64,000 nucleotides of DNA from Sphingobacteriia bacterium RIFOXYC2_FULL_35_18 (GCA_001829005.1 MIAG01000002.1:564837-628836); one strand, 5' to 3'; positions 7,011 through 64,000 are shown, numbered from the stretch's first letter. Numbers and translations are program-made. The notes: generated from the letters alone by a model not told the origin.

Positions 7011-9173
7011 TTATTTTGGAATCTTATTCAGGCGATTGATAATTAACTTGTTTAAGGCCCAACCAGCAAAACTGTCACCCAAATCATTCAAGTATTCAAT
7101 GCTTTGTATTTTACCATTTTTAATGGTTGAACCTGCTGCAAATATTGCAACGACCTTATCGGCAAGAACAATCCATTCTCTCGACTTATTCAACTTGTCC
7201 ATTGCAGGGGCTTCTATAATAATAATGTCAAAAACATCTCTTAGAAACGCTAATTTGGGCTTTACTATAGACTCATCACAGAATTCAAAAATAGAAGTAT
7301 CTCCGCCTCTATTTCCCAAAACACTTACCCTCCCTTCTTTAATGATTTCAGAAAGGGTAATTCGATTTTTCAAATAATCTTCTAAATAACAATTGGTCCC
7401 TGTAGTTGCAGTTATTGTAGGTTGATCAAAGTTGCCATCTATAACTAGCACTCTCTTATTAACCATTGAATAAGCATATGCAAGGCCAAGCGATATCAAT
7501 GTTTTACCTTCTCCATCCGCTAAACTGGTAATAACTAATTGCTTTTTGTGCCCCATTTCTCTTTCAATTTCAAAGCGAAGAGAACGCAGCAAATTCTTAA
7601 AAGCAATGGTTACTTTATTCCCTTCTCCATTCTTCCAAAGATTAGTTAAGTCTAACATGGAAGTATTTATATAAGGCAGATAGGCTAAAACTGCTAAGTT
7701 GGTTTTATTGGCTAAATCAGTAGCATTTTGAATGCTGTCATCTAAATAGAAAATAACAAACAATGCAGCTAAACAAAATATAAAACTGATGATACCCGCT
7801 AATGCAACAAGTATTAATTTTTTTGAAGGTTGAGCAGGTCCAGGCATGGCCATTTCAATCTGTCTTAATTGAACAGTCATACTAGACTCTAAAGAAGTTT
7901 GATTAAACCTATTTTGAATATCTAAGTACTCTTTACCGGCAACATCAACTAGTCCTTCATAGTTTTGAATAAGTGCTTCATGCGGAACAAGCATATCAAA
8001 CTTTTCGTTTAATCTTCTTAATTCATCGGTTAGCGGAATAATGCTGCTCCTAGACTGGTCTAAGGCAATTTCTAAATTGAATCTTTGCTGCACCAATAAT
8101 TGCTTATTGGCCAAAGGGCTAACCAGTAATCGATCGGTAGATTGTAAAACTTGTTGCTCCAATAAAGCTTTTAATGAGTCTTGCTTCTGTTTAATTCTTG
8201 GATCAAAATTGCTTTTAACTAAATCATTGGTCACTACCCTGAGTCGTTCTCTGGTGGCTAATACTGACTGATTAATATCTACCACCACACTTTCCAAATA
8301 CCGTCTATCTTGAGGACTAAATTTTTGATCAATTCCTTTTATTGCACCTTCAAAAGACTCCACATCTTTTTTAGCAACCTGCAGTCTTGACTCAAAATCG
8401 GCAATCTGAGTATATAAACTCTTTGCTTGTTCATTTAAATTGAGAACCCTATTCCTGATTTTATAATCACGTAACAAACGAGTTTTAGCAGACAAAGAGT
8501 CAAACTTCTTTTTCATCAACATGTCTAAGAAGTTTACTGCCTTTTCTTGATTGCCTTTAATATAGTTGGAGTAGAAATCAATAAATTCATCTATTAAAGT
8601 ATTGATTACGAAAGCAGATAAAAATGGATTTTCTGATTCATATTCAAAATCTATAAAGTCACTATTATTGACCCTATAAATAAATACTTTCTTTTGTAAA
8701 GTTGCTTCGTCATATCCCATAGATATGAGCAACTGATTAATTCCAAACTGGTCTTTATCAAACAACGACAAAGGCTGTTTAGAAGCAATATGCGCCTTAA
8801 ATACTTCTAAAGCGTGTGCCCTTGCATCTGGGCCTATTTCTTTTAGCAATTTACTTTGAGGCCTAAATGGCTTGTTACTGGTTAAATCGTGCACCATTAA
8901 GTGAAAAGAAACCTGATCAAAATTTCTTTTCAGCCTATTCATTTCGATTAGGTTGCTAAATTGTTGTGATGCTTTGTTTTCGTCTTGTCCACTATTTTTT
9001 TCTAGAAATTGTTGAGACTGATCAACTAGCCCTGTAGAAATTCTAGAACGAGATTTAAAAGTATCAGGGAGTTTACGAACTAGAAAATAGGTTATAAACA
9101 CTGCTATCATTGGAACAATGACCAGTATATATTTCCTTTTGTATAGCAGTAATAAAAACTTCTGTAATTCCAT
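7011..9173 (-). CDS. Wzz/Wzc-like polysaccharide co-polymerase with C-terminal CpsD-like ATPase domain
   Basis: N-terminal Wzz-type TM region, coiled coil, second TM, then Walker A-like SLADGEGKTLISLGLAYA and VLVIDGNFDQP. Confidence 0.85.
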   Translation of the reverse strand: MELQKFLLLLYKRKYILVIVPMIAVFITYFLVRKLPDTFKSRSRISTGLVDQSQQFLEKNSGQDENKASQQFSNLIEMNRLKRNFDQVSFHLMVHDLTSNKPFRPQSKLLKEIGPDARAHALEVFKAHIASKQPLSLFDKDQFGINQLLISMGYDEATLQKKVFIYRVNNSDFIDFEYESENPFLSAFVINTLIDEFIDFYSNYIKGNQEKAVNFLDMLMKKKFDSLSAKTRLLRDYKIRNRVLNLNEQAKSLYTQIADFESRLQVAKKDVESFEGAIKGIDQKFSPQDRRYLESVVVDINQSVLATRERLRVVTNDLVKSNFDPRIKQKQDSLKALLEQQVLQSTDRLLVSPLANKQLLVQQRFNLEIALDQSRSSIIPLTDELRRLNEKFDMLVPHEALIQNYEGLVDVAGKEYLDIQNRFNQTSLESSMTVQLRQIEMAMPGPAQPSKKLILVALAGIISFIFCLAALFVIFYLDDSIQNATDLANKTNLAVLAYLPYINTSMLDLTNLWKNGEGNKVTIAFKNLLRSLRFEIEREMGHKKQLVITSLADGEGKTLISLGLAYAYSMVNKRVLVIDGNFDQPTITATTGTNCYLEDYLKNRITLSEIIKEGRVSVLGNRGGDTSIFEFCDESIVKPKLAFLRDVFDIIIIEAPAMDKLNKSREWIVLADKVVAIFAAGSTIKNGKIQSIEYLNDLGDSFAGWALNKLIINRLNKIPK

Positions 9174-51198: not shown

Positions 51199-52113
51199 AT
51201 GAGATTATGCCTATTCCTACTCATTATTTTTCCTGCTTATATTTTACAAGCACAACCCAGCATCATCATCTTAGGCACAACCCAAGATGCAGGTTCCCCC
51301 CAAATAGGATGCACCAAAGACTGTTGCAAAAATCTTTTTAATCAACCTGACCATTCAAGGCAAGTTGTATCAGTAGGATTATTTGACCCTAATAAAAAAA
51401 TAAGCTACCTATTTGAAGCCACTCCAGATATTAGTAAGCAATTAAGACTTTTAAAAACATACAGTAAATCACCTACAGATTTGCCCAATGGTATATTTTT
51501 AACGCATGCACATATTGGACATTATACTGGACTGATGTACCTAGGAAAAGAAGCAATGAATGCAAAACAATTACCAGTTTATGCAATGCCCAAAATGAAA
51601 TCTTTTCTTGAACAAAATGGCCCTTGGAGTCAATTGGTGACTCAACAAAATATATTGATTAAAGACCTATCATTTAACCAACCTTTGCGCTTAAGTGATT
51701 CCCTATCGGTTACGCCGATTTTAGTTCCTCACCGAGATGAATATTCAGAAACGGTTGGTTACCTTATCAGTGGCCCTAGAAAAAAATTACTCTTTATTCC
51801 TGATATAGATAAATGGGAAAAATGGAATCAAGATATTAATACATTAATTAAACAAGTAGACTTTGCGTTAATTGATGCCACTTTTTTTGATGCAGCTGAA
51901 ATCAATAACAGACCCATCAGTGAAATACCACACCCGTTTGTTGTAGAAAGTATGGAACGATTTGCAGTGATGCCATTAAAAGAAAAACAGAAAATACATT
52001 TCATTCATTTTAATCATACCAATCCGTTATTGAACATCAACAGTGAAGCCAGTGAACAAATATTGAAAGCGGGTTTCAAAATTGCAAAACAAGGCCTTGA
52101 GTTTAAACTATAA
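51199..52113 (+). CDS. Secreted MBL-fold metallo-hydrolase (PqqB-like)
   Basis: Signal peptide; IIILGTTQDAGSPQIGCTKDCCKN; FLTHAHIGHYTGLMYLGKEAM; FIPDIDKWEKW; IHFIHFNHTNPLL. Confidence 0.85.
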   Translation: MRLCLFLLIIFPAYILQAQPSIIILGTTQDAGSPQIGCTKDCCKNLFNQPDHSRQVVSVGLFDPNKKISYLFEATPDISKQLRLLKTYSKSPTDLPNGIFLTHAHIGHYTGLMYLGKEAMNAKQLPVYAMPKMKSFLEQNGPWSQLVTQQNILIKDLSFNQPLRLSDSLSVTPILVPHRDEYSETVGYLISGPRKKLLFIPDIDKWEKWNQDINTLIKQVDFALIDATFFDAAEINNRPISEIPHPFVVESMERFAVMPLKEKQKIHFIHFNHTNPLLNINSEASEQILKAGFKIAKQGLEFKL

Positions 52114-52199: not shown

Positions 52200-54269
52200 C
52201 TAATAATCAACATTAATTTTTTCTAAATCACTGCTACCACCTGTTTTAAATACAGCTTTGATGTAGTAGGTATACCGTGTATTTTCACGAACATCATCGT
52301 CGTCAAATATTGTTGCATTACCGGGAATAACAGATTGTAAAGCGATGTCTTCTTCATTACCATTCATTACACGATAAATCCAAAACTCCCGGATATTATT
52401 TGACACCTGTTTATTGATATTCCAGTTCAGCTCAATATATTTTTTTTCTCCACGCGATGAATATGCATTTAGGTTAGAAAGTATTTTGACTTTCCCAGCC
52501 GCTTTCGCTGGAGCTTTGTAAGAACGCTCATTAGAGAATTCACTTTTTAAACCACCCTTATCTACTGCTTGTATTTTATACACATAAGAAATGGTTGGAT
52601 CTACATTTATATCCATATAAACAGAATCCGAAGCTGATGGCGTTACAATTTCTGTCCATGTTGCTAAGCTGTCATCTCCAGCTTTACGTGAAAGGGCATA
52701 ACTCAAAACATCTTTACTGAAACTTTTCTTCCATCGTACTTCAATACTTTTATTGTTATTCAACTTTACGCTAAGCAATGTTGCAATGGCAGGCGGAATG
52801 GTATCGGGCCTATTAAGGCGTATGGGTTCTGATAATGCAGATTCATTATACCTGTTATCCAAAGCGGATACTTTATAAAAAATATCAGTATTAAGCTGGT
52901 TAAGCGGAAGTTTTTCTTTAAATATAATTTCGCTTACTGGTTCGCCCGTAAGCAACGCGTATGTTTCTGTATCGTTAAACGAACGATATACTTTATAAGC
53001 TAAGATATCTGGTTCTTTATTGCCCGCCCAAACGAGGATCACATTGCCGTTTGTATCTATTATTCCGTTAAGACTAATGGGAGGTGCGGGAGGCATGGAA
53101 TCGTTCAATTGGTACAGATAAGGAAAAGATTCTACATATTGATTGCCTTTCTTGTTGATGGCTCGCAATCTAAAATAATTAGACGGCGATGGCTTAAAAT
53201 CAAATGCCTCAATAGAATCTTTCGTTGCCAGAAATGTAAATATTTTCTTGTAGCTACTGTCGTTCCCGGTTTCAGATACTCTTATCTCATATTGCCTCAC
53301 CAGTTTTTTTACTGAGTCTGGCATCGTCCAATTAACAACAAATTTGCCTGCTAGTGTATCGATTGATTTGATCTTAGGCAGGGTACGTATATCGGGTAGA
53401 CAAATGCCTGAAACAACCGCACCGGGATTACTAGTGATGCCAAATACATTCACTGCTTTTATTCTGTAGTAATACTTTTTATTTTGGAGTACATTTGTGT
53501 CTTGATAAAGCATCATTTTTTTTGTAGTATCTATTTCTATTTCATTTACGTTTTTTAAGCTCGTCAAAAGGGGAGGGTTAGTAAGGGTACTAAAGTTAAT
53601 ACTGTCAGTAGATCGCTCTACCAGCACCCCTATATAATCATCCATCACAGGTTTAATATTCCATTCAAGATTTACACTTTTCTCCTTGAACTCTGCCTCA
53701 ACAGTAGGAAGTATAGGTAATTTATTATCATCTTGAACTATTACCACTGAAGCCGTTTGTTTCTCCTGAGCTATAGTTGCTACCGTTATACGGTATGTAT
53801 ATTTTTTTCCAGGTATAGTAGTAGAGTCTGTGAAAGCGGATGCTGACAATACTGCTGCTTCGGCATTATAAGAAGACATTAGCAGATAATAACCGTATAA
53901 TTCCTTATCATCGGGCACATTTTTATCTTTTGGATCAGGCTTCTGTTGAAGCAAGGCCGTAACAGTATACACTGCGCTCTTAGTCCCGTATTTCTGTGCT
54001 GCAATAAGTGTAATTGGCTTCAAGGGAGTTTTATTCAACAACTGAAAATTCGTTGATCCGTTCTCTAATCTTTCTACATTATACCCTAAACTATTTGCCT
54101 TCCTCCATTGCGCTGCGTTGCCTAGCGTCCATCGAAGGAATACTTTATGACCCGCCCTATAAGCAACTGGTTTAGTTTCAAAATTCATAGCGGTTTGTGC
54201 ATGAATATCCGATATGGCCAAACAAAACAAAAGCAATATTCCTAGGTTAACTATTTTCATTATACTCAT
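52200..54269 (-). CDS. Exported multi-domain fibronectin type III protein
   Basis: 689 aa with signal peptide; repeated Fn3-like blocks, e.g. IRTLPKIKSIDTLAGKFVVNWTMPDS and PAIATLLSVKLNNNKSIEVRWKKSFSKDVLSYALSRK. Confidence 0.8.
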   Translation of the reverse strand: MSIMKIVNLGILLLFCLAISDIHAQTAMNFETKPVAYRAGHKVFLRWTLGNAAQWRKANSLGYNVERLENGSTNFQLLNKTPLKPITLIAAQKYGTKSAVYTVTALLQQKPDPKDKNVPDDKELYGYYLLMSSYNAEAAVLSASAFTDSTTIPGKKYTYRITVATIAQEKQTASVVIVQDDNKLPILPTVEAEFKEKSVNLEWNIKPVMDDYIGVLVERSTDSINFSTLTNPPLLTSLKNVNEIEIDTTKKMMLYQDTNVLQNKKYYYRIKAVNVFGITSNPGAVVSGICLPDIRTLPKIKSIDTLAGKFVVNWTMPDSVKKLVRQYEIRVSETGNDSSYKKIFTFLATKDSIEAFDFKPSPSNYFRLRAINKKGNQYVESFPYLYQLNDSMPPAPPISLNGIIDTNGNVILVWAGNKEPDILAYKVYRSFNDTETYALLTGEPVSEIIFKEKLPLNQLNTDIFYKVSALDNRYNESALSEPIRLNRPDTIPPAIATLLSVKLNNNKSIEVRWKKSFSKDVLSYALSRKAGDDSLATWTEIVTPSASDSVYMDINVDPTISYVYKIQAVDKGGLKSEFSNERSYKAPAKAAGKVKILSNLNAYSSRGEKKYIELNWNINKQVSNNIREFWIYRVMNGNEEDIALQSVIPGNATIFDDDDVRENTRYTYYIKAVFKTGGSSDLEKINVDY

Positions 54270-54271
54270 TA

Positions 54272-57200
54272 TTAGAATTTAATATTATCGCATTTCGATC
54301 CTTCTTCCCAAGGGATCTCCTTGTTTCCCCTATATCCGAGCACATTATAATCGAAACGTACAGTACCAGACATATACAGCGGCCAAGGCCCTTTAACAGT
54401 TAATGTCAGTCCTATGTTTCCGCTCAATATTTCATAATTTTGTCCTGCAATGATAACACCTGCAGCTCCGTTAAGACTAGCATATACCTTCCCTTGTCCA
54501 TACCATCCATACAAACCACCGCTACTCGCTCCATTGCAAATGAAATTATCAAAACGTTTCAACGCCAAGTCCATCCCGAACTTCCCGTTTAAATAGGCGT
54601 AAGCACCAAACCCACCAATTGATGCTCTAAAGCCAAAAGAGGCGCCAATCCCAAACCCGGTTTTTACTGAGAAATTAGAACCATCATCACCCTGAGCATT
54701 GGTCACCTGCAAGTAGAATGACCCTTCTGCATTTATATGTTTGACTTTCGGTAAAAGGAACGTCACCCCTAATGGTTCTTCTTGGGTTCCTACATTCAAC
54801 TTAAATGTACTTCCGGATATATATAATTCTGCAAGTCCTGCCCTAAAATTGGCACCACTGCCCTCCACTATACTCTGCCCTCCTGCCTCCATTGCCACGT
54901 AGGCTTGTAGTACAAAACTAAAAGTGTTATTGGCGATGTCCATCTTGGCTATAAAGTCGCCCCAAATAACTGGGTCTCCATCGGGCCTTGCATATGCAGG
55001 CAATGCGACACCGCTCGATTTATCGGAAACAGTGGTTGTTTTTGTAGCCGCTGTGGCTACAGCAGCACTTTGTAATGCGCTGTCGGCAATTTCAAGCATA
55101 GCAACGGCCACACCTACATGCTTCTTCCTGTTTTCCATTTCCGTAAAGACGTACTTTTCATAGTAGCTCTTTTGGCTTTTCTTAAGATCGTCATATATCA
55201 CCATATCAATGGCGATTTGCACAGACATATCAACAGGGTTTCTCAATATTTGCAAACCGCCCAGTGTATCAAAATTCTTATTTCTAGCATAGTTCTTTTC
55301 GAGATAATTCATTTGTTCTTTAGAAGGATTGAACAACAACTCTCCTCTAGAAAGAGATTTGCCTTCCTGCGCAATTTTTGTATTGAGTATCTCTAACTTA
55401 TTTACTAAGGGTTTTTTAAGATCTGCATTACGGGTATAGTTTATATCCATGATTAATTTGGCTCTTGCAACTACATCATCATAAAGTGTTTGTTGCTGTT
55501 TAACCGCCCGAACACGATTCGCTTCTTTCAAAAATGCGGCATATTTATCATTCGCCTCATCAGAAGCGTCGATGGCAGATAACTCAGTAGCTGAAAGGGT
55601 AAGACCACCATCTTTTTTAATTCTTGCAGATCTTGCTTTTACTGCTAAATCATATACAGTCGTATTGACTTTAACCATTCCTTCATAGGTGAAAAGAGAA
55701 TCTCTAACTGTTGTACCCCCCATAACAGCTGCAGTATCATAACTTTTGGAGCCTCTTAGTTTAGCATAATTACTACCAGCGAGTGTAGAAAGACCTATAT
55801 AAGCATTTCTTAAATCGGGATTATTTTTTGTAATACCCAGTGTTCGCATCAAATCACCCGAAGCTCTCTCGTAAGGACGCATTCCGACTTCATTTATCCA
55901 ATAGCGCTCTAAGGCCTCATATCTATCGGTAGAGTCCAATTTCTTCATATTATAATCAAAAACGTCATTATAATATGGCACTAATAATTTAGCCACTGTT
56001 ATTACACCGTATTCATTGGAGTTTTCTGCTTTAAATAATAATAAAGATGGAAGCTCGCCAGGTGCTGCCCTTGCCTCCCTTTCAATAGTTGCTGGAGTAG
56101 GAATTACATATTTATTCTCATAAGTAAAACTATTGTCCTTTTGAAGGGGGGTAATCATGTACGGAAGCTTAATTCTTTTACATATCTCCTTCCAAGCATT
56201 GGTATTATCTACCAACTTTGAGAATGCTTGATGGCTTTTCGAAAATTGCACATATGGGTGGGTATCAAAACGTGTATCCCACTTTCTTGAACTTTCTTTG
56301 AGTCTATAATAGGTATTGCTCACAGTAACACCAATATTTGCCATAGAATCAAATACAACAACTGCTCTATCATAGATCGGTTTATTAATCACATATCTCG
56401 ATTTCATTTTGGCCATAGTTGCTGAATCGAATTTTGCAGGCAGATCATATTTATTGGCAGGAAATAGTGTTTCAATCTTATTGGTTGTAGTACTAGTAAC
56501 TGCTTCTTCAGCACCGATAATTGCACCCTGACTAGAGCCTTCTGCTTCTTCTTTTCCACCTGAGTATCTTGCCAGTTTATCAATAAGTGGCGATCCTTCC
56601 TCTACTTCATTGTCTTCTTTGTCATCTTCTTTTTTCTTACTACTCTTGGAGCCCTTAGAAGAAACACTTTTATCATCACCATTCTTTATTGGATTAATTT
56701 CGGGTTTTTTAATCACCACATCCGGTTTGGAAAATATTTGTGCCCTTCCACTGAGGGACACTTCATTTACCCCACCGTTTTTGTTAAATACAATTTCAAG
56801 TCCGGCCCAACCTGTAAACAACTGTTCTTTTCCTATTTCAAGATAAACACCTGCTCTTACTCGCAGGAAAGATTGTTGATTCGGTTTATAAGAAATACCT
56901 GAGAGAGAAACCGGCAGCACACCGTCTGGCGTTATAGGGTCCATTCGGTAAGTTACACCGCCACTGAAACCAGTAATAGTTAGTTTACCAACTTGGTACC
57001 TTACCTTTTTCACCATGGCGTCTACATTAAAATAGTCATATTGCTGCCCATTATTAATGTCCCTATTAATTCCAAATAAAACAGAAGCACCCATTTCTAC
57101 TTTATCCAACACTGTTAATGTAATAGTTCCACCATAGGCCATCCCATAGGTTTTATCCTTTATCAAATTGATCTCTCCCTTAAACTTTACTTTCCCGCCT

Positions 57201-59026
57201 TCGTAACCAACTTTCACTTTTGAAATACGATAATCTGCATATTTCCATTTCTTTGTTGTTGTATCATATTTCATGTAAAGGTCAAATGTGGTACCGCCAT
57301 TTACCTTACCCCCACCTAATTGCAGATTGGCGTCAAAATGTAAACAAGCATACTCTGCCGTGTTAGCATCCGAAGCGTTATTCGGAGCAGAGTTGCTGTT
57401 GTATTCAACCGCAACAACTGCTGAAAAGCCGCCAAGCGTAATCTGCCTAACTGTGCCCATTGAGCCTATTGTCAATAATGTGCCCTCTGTCTGCAGCACC
57501 ATATCTTCTACTTCTATGTCTTCAGCGCTGAAATTTGCTTTTTTCTCTCTCCCCTCCTGTTTCTTAGTAGGTATATAAGGGGCATTATCTCCGCTCATAC
57601 TAAAATCGAATTTGCCAGAGAGTGTGACTTTCGGCAGGAGTATATTTCGCTTTAAATCTATATTCATGGAGAGTTCAATATTCTCAGGATGAATATATCC
57701 ATACCAAGGCTTCATGGTGATGTATGCAATATCACCTTCACCCTGCTCTGTTTCTATTGAACCGTCATCATTGATCGTTGTTTCAAAAGGAATGCCTTTT
57801 ATATTAAAACCTGGATCCTCAATAGGCAAAATCAACTTTCCTGAAAATGCTCCTCCGGTAAGTTCTCCTTTCAATACAGAAATATTGAATTTAGTAATGC
57901 TCATATCCCAACCGTTGGCACTACCTGTATTATAATCAAACACGTTACTAGCGTCAACAGAAAAGCTGAACCCATTATCATCTATCACACCATATTTAAT
58001 GCCTACTACTTTGGACGTTTTTTTGCCTGTATAAAAATAGCCAGGCAAGCTTACCTCCATTTTATTAATAGCTATTCCGCGCCATAAACTAGGCTTTGAA
58101 TTGTCTTTTGAAATATATGCACCGAGATCACCACCGGAAGGACTTTTATTATCATTCATGTCTAGCGTTGCTTCCGAAATACGAAATGCATACCCCCCTA
58201 ATAATGGAACTGAAGTTGCTGTGAAATAACCATTGAACTGTAATTTCTCTACATATATTTCCTCCCATTTTGTTAAGCCAGTTACTGATATTGTCGATTT
58301 CAACTGCTCGTCTTTCGCAGTGACTCCGTTAGCTGTAATAGGTTTGTATTTATCCTTATTCAGGTTTATAGACCCATTAATATCCAAACCAGTAAACCCA
58401 TTGCAATCAAAGCTCATGGTCGTGGGTGAAGTACTTCCTTCTCCATTCAATATAAAACTCCAATCAACGCTATTATTTACTGTTTGGTCGCCGATTAGTG
58501 TAAGCTTATTGCCACTACCCGCTCCACCAATTCTTGAGAGATTTACAAATCCCTGGAAATAGATTGCCGAATTCTGCGAACCATTTAGCAACATTCTACC
58601 AAAAACCCTTGCAACAGCACCCGATTTTGTAATGCTTACGCTGTTAAAGGCAAGTTGATAAACAGTAGAATAGTTCGGCACTTTCTTCAGCATACCAAAA
58701 GGGAACTTGACAGAAGAATTCTCTGTTAGCAAGTTTACCCAAGAACCATTTCTAGTTATCTGCTCGAATGCAGTTTTCGCAGAATCAATCACTAAAACAT
58801 CTTCCTGACCTAATGGTGTTTCAGGTATCACAAGGTTGGAAAGCATTTCTGGAGACCATATTGGCACTGCTGCGGGTAATGGAGTTTTCGATGGCGACAG
58901 TTTATTGGTTTTGTTTTTTTCAGTACTAGACTTTTCTTTCTCGTTTTCGTGAGAAAAAGCATTCAGTCCAGAAAATAATAAAAAACAAAGCGACAAATAT
59001 TTGATGATAGCTATTTTCTTTCGCAT
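54272..59026 (-). CDS. Very large exported beta-rich protein of unknown function (1584 aa)
   Basis: Signal peptide; N- and C-terminal alternating beta-strand/Gly-rich regions; central charged (KSSKKKEDDKEDNEVEEG) and helix-rich segment; no family recognised. Confidence 0.8.
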   Translation of the reverse strand: MRKKIAIIKYLSLCFLLFSGLNAFSHENEKEKSSTEKNKTNKLSPSKTPLPAAVPIWSPEMLSNLVIPETPLGQEDVLVIDSAKTAFEQITRNGSWVNLLTENSSVKFPFGMLKKVPNYSTVYQLAFNSVSITKSGAVARVFGRMLLNGSQNSAIYFQGFVNLSRIGGAGSGNKLTLIGDQTVNNSVDWSFILNGEGSTSPTTMSFDCNGFTGLDINGSINLNKDKYKPITANGVTAKDEQLKSTISVTGLTKWEEIYVEKLQFNGYFTATSVPLLGGYAFRISEATLDMNDNKSPSGGDLGAYISKDNSKPSLWRGIAINKMEVSLPGYFYTGKKTSKVVGIKYGVIDDNGFSFSVDASNVFDYNTGSANGWDMSITKFNISVLKGELTGGAFSGKLILPIEDPGFNIKGIPFETTINDDGSIETEQGEGDIAYITMKPWYGYIHPENIELSMNIDLKRNILLPKVTLSGKFDFSMSGDNAPYIPTKKQEGREKKANFSAEDIEVEDMVLQTEGTLLTIGSMGTVRQITLGGFSAVVAVEYNSNSAPNNASDANTAEYACLHFDANLQLGGGKVNGGTTFDLYMKYDTTTKKWKYADYRISKVKVGYEGGKVKFKGEINLIKDKTYGMAYGGTITLTVLDKVEMGASVLFGINRDINNGQQYDYFNVDAMVKKVRYQVGKLTITGFSGGVTYRMDPITPDGVLPVSLSGISYKPNQQSFLRVRAGVYLEIGKEQLFTGWAGLEIVFNKNGGVNEVSLSGRAQIFSKPDVVIKKPEINPIKNGDDKSVSSKGSKSSKKKEDDKEDNEVEEGSPLIDKLARYSGGKEEAEGSSQGAIIGAEEAVTSTTTNKIETLFPANKYDLPAKFDSATMAKMKSRYVINKPIYDRAVVVFDSMANIGVTVSNTYYRLKESSRKWDTRFDTHPYVQFSKSHQAFSKLVDNTNAWKEICKRIKLPYMITPLQKDNSFTYENKYVIPTPATIEREARAAPGELPSLLLFKAENSNEYGVITVAKLLVPYYNDVFDYNMKKLDSTDRYEALERYWINEVGMRPYERASGDLMRTLGITKNNPDLRNAYIGLSTLAGSNYAKLRGSKSYDTAAVMGGTTVRDSLFTYEGMVKVNTTVYDLAVKARSARIKKDGGLTLSATELSAIDASDEANDKYAAFLKEANRVRAVKQQQTLYDDVVARAKLIMDINYTRNADLKKPLVNKLEILNTKIAQEGKSLSRGELLFNPSKEQMNYLEKNYARNKNFDTLGGLQILRNPVDMSVQIAIDMVIYDDLKKSQKSYYEKYVFTEMENRKKHVGVAVAMLEIADSALQSAAVATAATKTTTVSDKSSGVALPAYARPDGDPVIWGDFIAKMDIANNTFSFVLQAYVAMEAGGQSIVEGSGANFRAGLAELYISGSTFKLNVGTQEEPLGVTFLLPKVKHINAEGSFYLQVTNAQGDDGSNFSVKTGFGIGASFGFRASIGGFGAYAYLNGKFGMDLALKRFDNFICNGASSGGLYGWYGQGKVYASLNGAAGVIIAGQNYEILSGNIGLTLTVKGPWPLYMSGTVRFDYNVLGYRGNKEIPWEEGSKCDNIKF

Positions 59027-59031
59027 AGGGA

Positions 59032-60531
59032 TTACTGATTTGATAAATTAACTGCCCCGTCAATCACTTCTTTATTTTTATTGATCTTAATACTTCTGAA
59101 TGTAACATCGGTTTTAAATACACGACCTCCCAACCACATTTCAATTATTCCATCACCACTGAATGTACCGCCACCGCCTGTAGCGTTACTAATAGTAACG
59201 GTGAAGTCGCCAGCTTTAATAACATCATTTTGCACCAACGTTGTTAACAAATTGCTTTCATCTAACTTAGCAATAACCGGTTTTGCCCCACAGGAGGCCT
59301 TGATAGCACTCGCCCCTGTTGTGTTTGAAGACTTCTCTTGTTTAACTGCTACAACTAAGCCCTTTGAATCATTTGTTGAGAATTTTGTCACATTGGAAGT
59401 TGCTGTAACAGCAGACGAAAAACTTGTTGCTGCCACACATGTTCTCAACGCCCTTACTTCGTAAGTAGTGGCGGACTTAAGATTGGGAATTGTAATATTA
59501 TCACCTATTATTGCTGGCATTTTCATAACAGTCCAATTGGCATCTGATTCTTTTCTATAGCTTAATTGTAAATTCAAGGGATCACTATCAAAATTTAACC
59601 AACTTACTGTTGCTTTCGTGCTATCCAAGTCTCCCATAAACAATGCTACTGCCTGACAGGGAGATGAATATTTAAAAGTTGCCACATTACTATATCCATT
59701 ATTTGCAAAAACCGTGGCGGTAAATCCACCATTATCATTTGATTTTGCCTGTACCCTCCATGCGTATGTTCTATTAGATAATAATGGCGGTGTTTTAGTA
59801 ATATCATAATTATATCCAGTATTGATTGTACTATCAGTGTAATAAATAGGATTAGTGATAAATGCCGTTAGTGGGTTCTGTCCATCATAAAGTAATTGCA
59901 CCACTTGTAATACATAGATAACACCTCCTGCTGCTGAACCTTGTCTTGGTTGCCATTGAAAAAAAATATTTTGCGACCCTTGAGAAGTTTGTAGCGACTT
60001 ATCTAATGGGGCTGTGGTAATTGGAGGAGTATTCATAGTAAAAGTAAGGCTATATGAAGATTCCTCACTAATCTGCCTCTGGGTTATAGCATCAAATAAT
60101 GTAAAGCTGTATGTAATTTTTGATTGCGGAAAGGTATTATTATATTGGTCGAGTGAGATGCCAGAGAGTCTACTGAAATTAAAAATTGAAGCCATATCTA
60201 AATTAGATAATCGAACAGGCGTATTACCAACTAAACTAACTGGTAATGCCATTGAAAGTGAACTAGTCTGCGCCACAAATGAACCCGCAGTAATCTTTAC
60301 TTTAAGCAATGCATTTAATACACCCGCATTTGAAGATTTATTGGTGATAGTAACATACATAAATGGCAAATTAGCATTCCCAATATATTGCAAGGAAACA
60401 GGAAACGGTGGGTATATTACTGGAGTAACACTAATTGGATAATTAATATTTACCTGTGCATTACCGTGTTGTTGCAATACTAAAAAAGAAACTAGCAAAC
60501 AAATGGTATTGTATATTTTACGAGGATTCAT
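59032..60531 (-). CDS. Exported Fn3-containing protein, possibly TANFOR-domain-like
   Basis: Signal peptide; N-term PVIYPPFPVSLQYIGNANLPFMYVTITNKS; Fn3 ISWLNFDSDPLNLQLSYRKESDANW...SATTYEVRALRTC-like. Confidence 0.65.
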   Translation of the reverse strand: MNPRKIYNTICLLVSFLVLQQHGNAQVNINYPISVTPVIYPPFPVSLQYIGNANLPFMYVTITNKSSNAGVLNALLKVKITAGSFVAQTSSLSMALPVSLVGNTPVRLSNLDMASIFNFSRLSGISLDQYNNTFPQSKITYSFTLFDAITQRQISEESSYSLTFTMNTPPITTAPLDKSLQTSQGSQNIFFQWQPRQGSAAGGVIYVLQVVQLLYDGQNPLTAFITNPIYYTDSTINTGYNYDITKTPPLLSNRTYAWRVQAKSNDNGGFTATVFANNGYSNVATFKYSSPCQAVALFMGDLDSTKATVSWLNFDSDPLNLQLSYRKESDANWTVMKMPAIIGDNITIPNLKSATTYEVRALRTCVAATSFSSAVTATSNVTKFSTNDSKGLVVAVKQEKSSNTTGASAIKASCGAKPVIAKLDESNLLTTLVQNDVIKAGDFTVTISNATGGGGTFSGDGIIEMWLGGRVFKTDVTFRSIKINKNKEVIDGAVNLSNQ

Positions 60532-60532
60532 A

Positions 60533-62269
60533 TCAGAAACTGTAATTATAATTTAATGAAAACATACCTGTAGAAGTACTGCTCGTTGGAGTAGTAATTC
60601 CGCTCCTTGCATTATTCTGCACAATAGCATTAAGATTGAATACATGTTTTTTCTTGTACGTATATGAAGCTGTTACTTTAAAATTAACTACGTTCACCCG
60701 CTGTGCATCAGCAACTGTTTTTGTAGTATTATATCCTGATCCAATCATTAGCATTACCTGTTTATTAAAAATTTTTTTTCCAAAATTGAAATTAAATCCT
60801 AGCGCCTTTGTATTATTAGAATCAGGACCCTGTTTTACAGCACTATAATTCAGATTCATATTCCATTTTACCCCTGTTTTAGGATAGGCAGTAAAGAGAC
60901 TCACTGTTGCATTCTGAAATGCAGTACCCTGTAAATCCAAAAAGAAATCACCCTGCTGTTGGTCCCCTTTCTGATATGAATAACTGGCACTTAATGCCCG
61001 ACTTTCTTCAGGCGTTGATAGTATTTGATAATTCGCATTAACACTCATATTAGTATTCAATTGAACCAAACGCAAAGAATCCAAGTAAACCGGCACAAGG
61101 TTATTTTGGTTGGCAATATTATTTAGATTGCGAAAGTCAGTTACTCCTTTATTATTAGAGTAAGACCCATTGAAAGATAATTTTTGCGATGGAGTATAGG
61201 TAATACTAATATTGGTAAGTTGAGAATTGGTTTCCTGACTAACTGTTGTATCTTCTTTATTCGCTAGCATATGCTGAATACCTAACTGAGCACTTAAATC
61301 TACTTTTCTATTGAATAAAGGCACATGAAAAGTAAGTGCAGTATTTTCGAATCCATTTGTAACGTACAATGAACCCAGTGTTTCGTAGTTGAAGTCTACC
61401 TTCTCATAACTCATCCCAATTGTTGCAGTTTTAATATTTCTTGTAAGTTTAATATTTTGAGCTTGTTTATTATTTGTAGTACCATTTCTGTTTATCATTC
61501 CTGAAAAAAATGCATTCCCCTTATATAATAAAGGAGATTTCTGATCAGAAGTCATCAAGCTATTGGCTAATTCAACATTGTATTTAAATCCTTTCCAATC
61601 ACCATTTGTAACAAGACTGGCTACTAAATTTTGTTTAGGCTTTATTCCCTGCTCAACAGGAATATTCTGAGCAGAGGATGTATCATCCTTGGCATAAAAA
61701 ACGTTCACACCAAGAAACATTTTTTCAAACTGATAGCTACTTGCAATACCCATTCCAGTTCTTGAATATGTAGGGGGTGCATCAGGGTTCTGGAAATAGT
61801 CGCCACTTCCTCTTAAAAATTTTCCACCCAGCACCGAAAGTTTAAATTTACCAGGCGCATAATCTACACCCGCCCCATTAAACTGAAACCCATTTAATGT
61901 ATATGGTGTGAATGTCATAGCGATGGTACCTGCATGAAAAGTAAATGACTTGTACCTCGGGTGTATCGCTATTTTATTAAAAGGGATTGGTTGAAACCTA
62001 ACTGCTACTTGTGCATTAGAATACGTAAAATCCAGCGGTATATTGATCCCTTTCACATATAAGTTTAAATTTCCACCTAACACATAAGTGAAAGGTGTGC
62101 CGCCAAAACTATTATTGGATGAGTAATTGTAAAGCATTGAAGCATTAACTCCCCCATTAAGTTTAAAAAGTTTTCCTTTCCCAATAAGACTAAATGGATC
62201 AAAAGTCTGTCCGTTCATATGTAGGCATCCCGCTGTCAATATGGCTACGAGTGTTATAATCCTTTTCAT
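60533..62269 (-). CDS. Outer-membrane beta-barrel protein
   Basis: Signal peptide MKRIITLVAILTAGCLHMNGQ; alternating amphipathic strands; C-terminal FSLNYNYSF with terminal Phe. Confidence 0.75.
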   Translation of the reverse strand: MKRIITLVAILTAGCLHMNGQTFDPFSLIGKGKLFKLNGGVNASMLYNYSSNNSFGGTPFTYVLGGNLNLYVKGINIPLDFTYSNAQVAVRFQPIPFNKIAIHPRYKSFTFHAGTIAMTFTPYTLNGFQFNGAGVDYAPGKFKLSVLGGKFLRGSGDYFQNPDAPPTYSRTGMGIASSYQFEKMFLGVNVFYAKDDTSSAQNIPVEQGIKPKQNLVASLVTNGDWKGFKYNVELANSLMTSDQKSPLLYKGNAFFSGMINRNGTTNNKQAQNIKLTRNIKTATIGMSYEKVDFNYETLGSLYVTNGFENTALTFHVPLFNRKVDLSAQLGIQHMLANKEDTTVSQETNSQLTNISITYTPSQKLSFNGSYSNNKGVTDFRNLNNIANQNNLVPVYLDSLRLVQLNTNMSVNANYQILSTPEESRALSASYSYQKGDQQQGDFFLDLQGTAFQNATVSLFTAYPKTGVKWNMNLNYSAVKQGPDSNNTKALGFNFNFGKKIFNKQVMLMIGSGYNTTKTVADAQRVNVVNFKVTASYTYKKKHVFNLNAIVQNNARSGITTPTSSTSTGMFSLNYNYSF

Positions 62270-62290
62270 GTTATTATTCAACGGATTTAA

Positions 62291-64000
62291 TTAGTTTTTG
62301 ATAATGGCTCTTATTTCGTATCCCCCATCCGTTTGCACTATTAATACATAGGTTCTTTGCGACGGCTGTGTTGAAATATCAATGTCTTTTGAAAATTTGG
62401 CTACAGACTCTTGGTAAATGTTCTGAAATACAGAAGTCCCATTCAAGTCAAAAATTCTGACGGAAGTTTTACCAGGTCGATTCAGTTCTACATTAATTTT
62501 GAAAAGACCAGAAGTCGGATTGGGGCCTACAGTCAAGTTCCTAACTATCGTTGCATTGTTAGAAGCAACATTAGAGGAATCATTGGTTGTAATAACAATT
62601 GTGGCCGTATCGCTGCTTCTACAAATATTATAAGATGTATTATTAAGATACAACTTATAGGAACCTGGGTTGGCGAATTTAACAACTAATTCATTTGGAG
62701 TATTATTGAGCACATCAGCTCCTGTTGGTACCACCCATTGCTGCGATTGTGGAATAGAGCTGGTTAGGTTCACTGCTTTTATTTGTTGATTCACAAAAGC
62801 TTGCTTTGACACTACCATACGCGCCTTGATTGCAGTATCAGCCGTTGTTCTAAAGTTGACTGTGTCATTGATAATACATCCATTATTTAACACAACTGTT
62901 ACGCTATAAAAATCTTGATTTACTAAGCCCACAGTTTGTGTAGAAGCAGTGAATCCAGTATTTCTTGATATCCATGTATAACTTCTAACTGGTTCGATGG
63001 AGTTAACCGTTACAGGAATTACATTCGCCTTACACACCATCGTATCGCGTAAAGAGATCCTCGTACCAACTGTACTCAGGTACTGAGTAGTAACAGGCGT
63101 TGAGACAGAATAACAATTTAAATTATTCGTAACACGAACTGTATACGTGTTTAGCCCTAAAGCTTTTGTATACAAGAACCTACTCGTTTCGCCAGTGATA
63201 TCATTACCGTTTAATACCCATTGGTTATTAGTTATCGCTGAAGATTGAAGTAAAATACTATCACCAGTACAGAAAGAGGCTGCTGAGCGAATGATTACAG
63301 GAATAGTTGGAACAGGGTTAAATCTTAATACTAGCCCTGCTGTACTATCTGTGCCCTCGCTATTGACAAGTTTAACATTGTAGCGACCCGTATCTTTAAA
63401 TTGATTATTGTTCCATGAATATGGGAATGACGTGGGGCAAATACTTGTAACAGTGGAAGATGCCGCTCTAGTTATACCTTTATTTCCTGCAAGGTCATAA
63501 TAAACGATTGAGTAAGACTGAAGATCTGCAGCATCTCGGCTAGTCATATTATAAGAAGCGGTCCAGTTGTTGCCAGATACATTGGTTGCATTCACCGTTT
63601 TGCCTAAAATACTTACTGTTGGTGTTAGCAATGATTCGTTTGATATGAAGTTAACCGTTATGATATCACCTGGCTGAGCTTTATCACTATCAATATTATT
63701 TGACGAAAGACTTATGCTATTTAAAACTGGAGCTGTTTTGTCAAATACTACGTTGCTGCCATCGGTCACTTTACTAACCGACGTTCCAGCTATACCTGAA
63801 GAATCTTTAAAAGAAATATTAAAAGTTACATTTCCCTCCTGATCTGTATTTACCATAGAATATGTTGCAGACCAATTAAGACCAGAACCTGATGCAGTAA
63901 CAGTACGGCCTGCGATAGTAACAGCCGGTGGCTGTATTATCTCACTTGATACAAAACGTAAAGTAATCTGGTTTCCTATTTTTGCCTTACCAACTACCGA
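62291..64000 (-). CDS. Ig-like repeat protein with T9SS type A C-terminal sorting domain, N-terminus off window
   Basis: Frame stays open from 63856 to the window edge (SVVGKAKIGNQITLRFVSSEIIQPPAVTIAGRTVTASGSGLNWSATYSMV); tandem repeat with GDIITVNFISNESLLTPTVSILGKTVNATNVSGNNWTASYNM; C-term LTVGPNPTSGLFKINVELNRPGKTSVRIFDLNGTSVFQN...GGYEIRAIIKN. Confidence 0.85.
   Translation of the reverse strand, partial: SVVGKAKIGNQITLRFVSSEIIQPPAVTIAGRTVTASGSGLNWSATYSMVNTDQEGNVTFNISFKDSSGIAGTSVSKVTDGSNVVFDKTAPVLNSISLSSNNIDSDKAQPGDIITVNFISNESLLTPTVSILGKTVNATNVSGNNWTASYNMTSRDAADLQSYSIVYYDLAGNKGITRAASSTVTSICPTSFPYSWNNNQFKDTGRYNVKLVNSEGTDSTAGLVLRFNPVPTIPVIIRSAASFCTGDSILLQSSAITNNQWVLNGNDITGETSRFLYTKALGLNTYTVRVTNNLNCYSVSTPVTTQYLSTVGTRISLRDTMVCKANVIPVTVNSIEPVRSYTWISRNTGFTASTQTVGLVNQDFYSVTVVLNNGCIINDTVNFRTTADTAIKARMVVSKQAFVNQQIKAVNLTSSIPQSQQWVVPTGADVLNNTPNELVVKFANPGSYKLYLNNTSYNICRSSDTATIVITTNDSSNVASNNATIVRNLTVGPNPTSGLFKINVELNRPGKTSVRIFDLNGTSVFQNIYQESVAKFSKDIDISTQPSQRTYVLIVQTDGGYEIRAIIKN

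What the first reader, a model, noticed from the sequence alone, without database searches (positions are those of the whole stretch)
52200..64000. Compact exported-protein operon: T9SS Ig-like protein, OM barrel, Fn3/TANFOR-like protein, 1584-aa protein, Fn3 protein
Five consecutive - strand genes with gaps of only 2 to about 21 bp over about 11.8 kb. All with visible N-termini start with signal peptides; one has a T9SS sorting domain and another looks like an outer-membrane barrel. None is a housekeeping protein. The layout (surface-sorted partner, barrel, large beta-rich protein, Fn3 scaffolds) suggests a co-assembled cell-envelope apparatus or secreted matrix. This is the strongest candidate for an undescribed system here; the function is inference.
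Basis: partly seen in the sequence, partly recalled or inferred. Interest (0 to 1): 0.8.

Follow-up and report, generated by a model that had tools for sequence, protein, structure and literature searches.

The report
Toxin-less TANFOR surface apparatus operon
Five adjacent exported-protein genes of a Sediminibacterium-like bacterium are a toxin-less copy of the gene set that sits beside "TANFOR" toxins across Bacteroidota, and they expose an outer-membrane barrel that almost always accompanies TANFOR proteins but is not mentioned in the one paper on them.

Summary
In detail: five same-strand genes (gaps 9, 1, 5, 2 bp); the first is a 3,263-aa gene running past the window. The genome is Sediminibacterium-like and has a T9SS (SprA). 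Profiles built without the window identify the genes as a divergent TANFOR locus: the 499-aa protein carries the TANFOR N-terminal module (E 1e-34), the 582-aa gene a barrel family (2e-75), the 689-aa gene an Fn3 family (3e-92), and the 1584-aa protein a ~950-aa domain fused to TANFOR in many other genomes (4e-66). In 297 Bacteroidota genomes the barrel occurs in 69 and TANFOR in 68, both in 68; 96 of 114 TANFOR loci have a barrel within 25 kb, always on the same strand. Where TANFOR proteins carry toxins (AHH, colicin/pyocin DNase, phage lysozyme), the same barrel, core and Fn3 proteins are in the same locus or genome. In the window the toxin half and immunity gene are missing. TANFOR toxins are known (Jana 2020); the near-obligate barrel and the core are not described there. 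Best reading: conserved surface/delivery apparatus of the TANFOR class in a toxin-less, split-gene form. How its parts move or display TANFOR proteins is inference; both AlphaFold models failed.

The parts
62291..64000 (-). C-terminal 569 aa of a 3263-aa exported protein: NHL/virginiamycin-lyase-like propeller region, long array of Ig-like repeats, T9SS type A sorting domain at about 62309-62524; gene continues past the window (G000:C2 to about 636918)
60533..62281 (-). 582-aa outer-membrane barrel of the TANFOR-partner family (TTG start; ATG at 62269)
   Evidence: profile of distant relatives without the window E=1.8e-75; family ends in F in 27/38 vs 8/141 other proteins, p=2e-16; no Pfam/PDB family
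59032..60531 (-). 499-aa TANFOR N-terminal module + Fn3 + about 110-aa segment ('GDF' motif); ends where toxin-bearing relatives continue
   Evidence: TANFOR profile without the window E=9.5e-35; alignments; below detection by TIGR02542 itself
54272..59026 (-). 1584-aa class-I TANFOR 'core' protein, beta-rich by periodicity, matched in three colinear blocks (residues 167-404, 455-768, 1441-1581)
   Evidence: core profile without the window E=3.7e-66; phylum survey
54707..56722 (-). about 670-aa lineage-specific insertion in the core (residues 769-1440), present in L018, absent from distant relatives
   Evidence: purifying selection, dN/dS 0.18
52200..54269 (-). 689-aa Fn3 protein of the TANFOR-partner Fn3 family
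   Evidence: PF00041 E=8e-12; partner-family profile E=2.8e-92

Best explanation
The five genes are one operon encoding the conserved surface apparatus of the TANFOR class, in a toxin-less form. SHOWN by homology and gene order: the locus consists of a T9SS-sorted adhesin-like protein, the near-obligate TANFOR barrel, a TANFOR module, the class-I core and the partner Fn3 protein. In many other Bacteroidota TANFOR and core are one polypeptide; here they are two adjacent genes. In toxin-type loci the TANFOR module instead carries an exchangeable C-terminal toxin followed by an immunity-like gene, with the core as a separate gene. INFERRED mechanism: all proteins pass the inner membrane by Sec; the barrel inserts in the outer membrane; the TANFOR module docks on the barrel; core and Fn3 protein assemble with it into a beta-rich surface structure; the Ig-repeat protein leaves by T9SS and extends outwards for contact. 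In toxin-type relatives this assembly presents or delivers the toxin attached to TANFOR. In the window no toxin is attached or found, so the assembly most likely acts in surface contact or adhesion, or is a launcher whose cargo was lost. My confidence is about 0.85 for the identity (toxin-less TANFOR apparatus) and about 0.35 for the docking and assembly steps.
For: Homology with the window excluded from the profiles: barrel 1.8e-75, Fn3 2.8e-92, TANFOR 9.5e-35, core 3.7e-66. TANFOR and core are one protein in L020, L022, L041, L046-L048, L052, L055-L057, L063. Phylum survey of 297 genomes: barrel in 69, TANFOR in 68, both in 68 (Fisher 5e-67); 96/114 TANFOR loci have a same-strand barrel within 25 kb and no opposite-strand case; class-I core in 31 genomes, all with both; 64 of 70 strong Fn3-family hits lie within 25 kb of TANFOR, same strand. 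Toxins with the same parts: L059 barrel-core-Fn3-TANFOR with AHH nuclease (5e-12) then Imm11-like gene (8e-4); L075/L054 (one genome) colicin/pyocin DNase C-terminus (6e-42); L065, same genus as the window, phage lysozyme C-terminus (1e-13) plus an orphan cassette sharing 421 bp at 97.9% with another toxin end, that genome's barrel-core-Fn3-SprB cluster being on another contig (L021, L025). Polymorphism: toxin-type TANFOR proteins share 76-85% in the first 500 aa but no similarity in the last 250 aa in 5/6 pairs; toxin-less ones share 69-88% in the last 250 aa. SprA present.
Against: TIGR02542 does not detect the window protein; membership rests on profiles of intermediate relatives. No toxin or immunity gene in the operon and no second TANFOR in the genome, so a toxin-delivery role for this copy is unsupported. 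Docking, export route and assembly were not tested; both structure models failed (pLDDT 25 and 28). The T9SS adhesin is next to toxin-type loci but missing from many toxin-less cassettes, so it may be an optional part.
Confidence: 0.65

Rival explanations
1. It is a stable adhesion or cell-contact complex with no link to toxins: TANFOR-core-barrel-Fn3 is the ancestral surface assembly, and toxins were secondarily attached to TANFOR in some lineages, for example Flavobacteriaceae-type loci.
For: Most sampled cassettes are toxin-less with conserved C-termini; window and L018 keep all genes under purifying selection without a toxin.
Against: Toxin-type loci keep the whole apparatus; the cassette is patchy within the genus, 5 of 81 genomes, as for conflict-related accessory genes.
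Confidence: 0.4
2. It is a decayed toxin locus: the window's TANFOR protein lost its toxin and immunity gene.
For: The 499-aa protein stops exactly after the segment shared with toxin-type proteins; the core is a separate gene as in toxin-type loci.
Against: The relative L018, dS about 1 away, ends at the same point, and all genes are under purifying selection (dN/dS 0.05-0.18); the fused toxin-less form shows that TANFOR plus core without toxin is a normal state.
Confidence: 0.15
3. The roughly 670-aa insertion in the core (residues 769-1440) is the effector domain of this lineage.
For: Lineage-specific, no beta periodicity, lies in an otherwise conserved protein.
Against: No family match, internal rather than C-terminal, no immunity-like gene, and 72% conserved with L018 under purifying selection rather than exchanged.
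Confidence: 0.08
4. Generic operon of unrelated secreted proteins placed together by chance.
For: Fn3 and Ig-like proteins are common in Bacteroidota (general knowledge).
Against: Phylum-wide same-strand co-occurrence and gene fusions.
Confidence: 0.01

Closest known systems
TANFOR polymorphic toxins of Bacteroidetes (Jana, Salomon and Bosis 2020, PMC7073777; domain TIGR02542)
   Same: TANFOR N-terminal module, Fn3 domain, Sec-type N-terminus, Fn3 and T9SS-CTD neighbours, T9SS genome
   Different: No toxin or immunity gene; TANFOR module too divergent for TIGR02542; TANFOR and core split; the barrel and the core family are not mentioned in the paper's main text (one search finds no 'barrel')
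TANFOR-core fused proteins of other Bacteroidota (L020, L022, L041, L046-L048, L052, L055-L057, L063)
   Same: Same barrel, TANFOR, core, Fn3 set, colinear core
   Different: One polypeptide instead of two genes; no 670-aa insertion; most lack the T9SS adhesin
SprB/SprF-type T9SS adhesin systems
   Same: Large repetitive T9SS-sorted surface protein beside an outer-membrane barrel; SprB repeats in the same-genus relative L025
   Different: No match of the barrel to PorP/SprF or any other characterised Pfam family; the window adhesin has Ig-like and NHL repeats, a type A sorting domain and no SprB repeats

Membership tests
TANFOR polymorphic toxin class | N-terminal TANFOR domain by the curated model TIGR02542 | tested here: not met
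   no hit in G000 or in hmmscan of the 499-aa protein; note that no genome exceeds the cut-off, best relative 7.5e-15
TANFOR polymorphic toxin class | Homology to TANFOR modules by a profile of relatives, some of which hit TIGR02542 | tested here: met
   E=9.5e-35 with window and L018 excluded; shared PP, G, W and F.N.G.S columns
TANFOR polymorphic toxin class | C-terminal toxin domain | tested here: not met
   protein ends after the shared module; no toxin family in any of the five proteins (the HNH_4 line in the 3263-aa repeat array has no stretch passing on its own and covers 21 residues)
TANFOR polymorphic toxin class | Immunity gene downstream | tested here: not met
   next gene is a convergent metallo-beta-lactamase-like protein at 51199-52113 (fold name by eye)
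TANFOR polymorphic toxin class | Sec signal and T9SS genome | tested here: met
   hydrophobic N-termini (crude test); SprA 2383 bits
TANFOR neighbourhood (barrel, core, Fn3 partner set defined here) | Barrel, class-I core and Fn3 partner families adjacent on one strand | tested here: met
SprB/SprF gliding adhesin system | PorP/SprF-family barrel and SprB repeats | tested here: not met
   no PorP_SprF or SprB match; the sorting domain is type A
T9SS substrate (3263-aa protein) | Por_Secre_tail at the C-terminus | tested here: met

The most novel reading that the evidence does not exclude
The barrel (with core and Fn3 protein) is a dedicated outer-membrane conduit or launcher for TANFOR proteins, a two-step delivery system of its own rather than TANFOR proteins being ordinary T9SS cargo; the window shows that launcher without cargo.
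Probability: 0.22. Interest if true: 0.85.

Novelty: new variant of a known kind. Interest (0 to 1): 0.55.

Why it matters
How TANFOR toxins leave the cell has been an open question since 2020, with T9SS export proposed only by association. A barrel family that accompanies TANFOR in essentially every genome examined, plus a core domain that is either fused to TANFOR or encoded beside TANFOR toxins, gives concrete candidate parts that can be deleted and tested. It also shows that many TANFOR proteins are probably not toxins: a toxin-less form with a conserved C-terminus is common.

Tried and rejected
PDB sequence search with the barrel, core and TANFOR profiles: nothing usable (one barrel match at E=0.057 to a prenyltransferase, judged chance). 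PADLOC: none. A single profile for all TANFOR-attached cores was rejected: it mixes two classes, and the window matches class I only. Weak barrel hits below 60 bits (mostly 750-950-aa ORFs in other families) were treated as another family and left out of the counts; TANFOR hits below 40 bits likewise; these limits were set after seeing the lists. HNH_4, SecD and similar Pfam lines in the 3263-aa protein have no stretch passing on its own and lie in the repeat array: rejected. Sigma-70 scan of the operon: fewer sites than shuffles.

Full report
OBSERVATION. The window is G000:C2:564837-628836 of a 3.30-Mb, complete genome. The nearest named relative is the MAG 'Sediminibacterium sp. Gen4' (L018; core protein 75-76% identical). 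All five reported ORFs exist at the stated places, with gaps of 9, 1, 5 and 2 bp. The first gene is 3263 aa in full and starts with a signal-like segment. Upstream, after a further 273 bp, lies a 589-aa gene on the same strand; within that gap is a match to the Bacteroidetes promoter form, TTTG-N21-TAAGTTTG (the consensus is from general knowledge). Downstream is a convergent gene. All five genes are kept in L018 in the same order, with dN/dS 0.05-0.18 at dS about 1; for the 3263-aa gene only the C-terminal 569 aa were measured.

IDENTITY. Pfam and NCBIfam name only Fn3 in the 689-aa protein, a weak Fn3 in the 499-aa protein and the T9SS sorting domain. A whole-genome search with the 1584-aa protein found weak matches in four other genomes. 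Their neighbourhoods all contain a ~570-600-aa barrel-like gene and a ~670-750-aa Fn3 gene beside the match. In one of them (L019/L024) the neighbour is a 1915-aa protein with a metallopeptidase-like segment and a nuclease-like C-terminus followed by a 238-aa gene (read by eye, no family match). Searching the literature for TANFOR led to Jana et al. 2020 (PMC7073777): TANFOR proteins are polymorphic toxins, their neighbourhoods are enriched in SprB, Fn3 and T9SS sorting domains, and T9SS export is proposed. The word 'barrel' does not occur in that paper's text. Supplementary files could not be read.

Profiles built without the window or L018 then gave: barrel to the 582-aa protein 1.8e-75; Fn3 to the 689-aa protein 2.8e-92; TANFOR module to the 499-aa protein 9.5e-35; class-I core to the 1584-aa protein 3.7e-66, in three colinear blocks around a ~670-aa insertion. 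TIGR02542 itself does not detect the window protein, so this is a divergent TANFOR module. In L020, L022, L041 and eight further loci TANFOR and core are one polypeptide. The window therefore carries that protein split into two adjacent genes. A second class (L034, L036-L040) has TANFOR fused to a different ~1000-aa region but the same barrel and Fn3 families.

CO-OCCURRENCE. In 297 Bacteroidota genomes at least 90% complete, drawn evenly, the barrel (65 bits or more) is in 69, TANFOR (40 bits or more) in 68, both in 68 (Fisher p 5e-67). 96 of 114 TANFOR loci have a barrel within 25 kb, all on the same strand, 64 of them within 1 kb. The class-I core is in 31 genomes, all with both; 34 of 35 core loci have a barrel within 25 kb, the exception lying near a contig start. 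Of 70 Fn3-family hits of 117 bits or more, 64 are within 25 kb of TANFOR on the same strand. Three of the 297 genomes contributed to the profiles; leaving them out does not change the picture. Eighteen TANFOR loci lack a barrel within 25 kb, most of them on contigs without one. The seeds of the profiles came from TANFOR or core loci, but each search was blind to the other families. Within the genus the barrel is in 5 of 81 genomes and TANFOR in 5, four of them shared: an accessory locus.

TOXINS AND THE SAME APPARATUS. L059 reads barrel, core, Fn3, then a TANFOR protein ending in an AHH nuclease (5e-12) and an Imm11-like gene (8e-4, just under the family cut-off). In the window's own genus (L065) a TANFOR protein ends in a phage lysozyme (1e-13), followed by a possible immunity gene and an orphan cassette that repeats 421 bp at 97.9% identity but leads into a GH19-type end; that genome's core, Fn3, barrel and SprB adhesin are on another contig (L021, L025). 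In four same-genus loci (L069, L072, L073, L074) the first 500 aa of TANFOR proteins are 76-85% identical while the last 250 aa are unrelated in 5 of 6 pairs; in four toxin-less loci (L036, L037, L039, L040) the last 250 aa are 69-88% identical. So TANFOR proteins fall into a toxin-bearing polymorphic form and a toxin-less conserved form, and both use the same barrel and Fn3 families. In L069 and L072-L074 a T9SS sorting domain ends directly upstream of the barrel, the same order as in the window.

WHAT THE WINDOW HAS. TANFOR module, core, barrel, Fn3 protein and T9SS adhesin; no toxin domain, no immunity gene, no second TANFOR in the genome. The 499-aa protein stops after the segment shared with toxin-type proteins. 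The T9SS translocon gene sprA is present.

MECHANISM. Shown: homology, gene order, co-occurrence, presence of T9SS, toxin-type relatives with the same parts. The barrel assignment rests on size, signal-like N-terminus, a C-terminal phenylalanine in 27 of 38 family members against 8 of 141 other proteins (p 2e-16) and beta periodicity; the core is also strongly beta-periodic, its insertion is not. Inferred: the TANFOR module docks on the barrel; core and Fn3 protein build a surface structure; the adhesin extends from it by T9SS; toxin-type relatives present or deliver the attached toxin. Both structure predictions failed because only two sequences could be used.

VERDICT. A new variant of a known kind: a toxin-less, split-gene TANFOR locus. 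The added value is the near-obligate barrel and the shared core, which make the export question of TANFOR proteins directly testable. Later work on TANFOR in journals outside the library searched cannot be excluded.

Noticed in passing
L065:5341-5761 and 7550-7970: 421-bp direct repeat (97.9%) joins a TANFOR-lysozyme gene to an orphan cassette with a GH19-type end: a toxin-swap footprint in the same genus.
   Followed up: partly
L018:17944-21294: In the closest relative an Rhs-type protein (874 aa, Rhs core motif by eye, no Pfam hit) and a 240-aa lipoprotein-like gene lie 1.1 kb downstream of the Fn3 gene; the window lacks them.
   Followed up: partly
L045:948-2963, L049:17165-19198, L050:16531-18540: Loci with giant TANFOR proteins (3940-4137 aa) carry an extra similar-looking ~670-aa gene next to the Fn3 gene.
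   Followed up: no
L062, L069, L072-L074, L076: Barrels of one family are 815-819 aa, with a ~250-aa C-terminal extension after the barrel.
   Followed up: no
L034, L036-L040: Class II TANFOR proteins carry a different ~1000-aa conserved region in place of the class-I core, with the same barrel and Fn3 partners.
   Followed up: partly
L054:631-5484 and L075:6697-7707: In one genome the core gene is interrupted by a stop and a second barrel copy is truncated.
   Followed up: no
L025:578-7591: The SprB-repeat adhesin next to the barrel in the same-genus relative is split into 1909- and 418-aa ORFs, possibly a frameshift or assembly error.
   Followed up: no
window 62291-64000 and beyond (L023:291-10082): The 3263-aa adhesin holds many near-identical Ig-like repeats, some almost exact copies, so the array is probably length-variable.
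   Followed up: no
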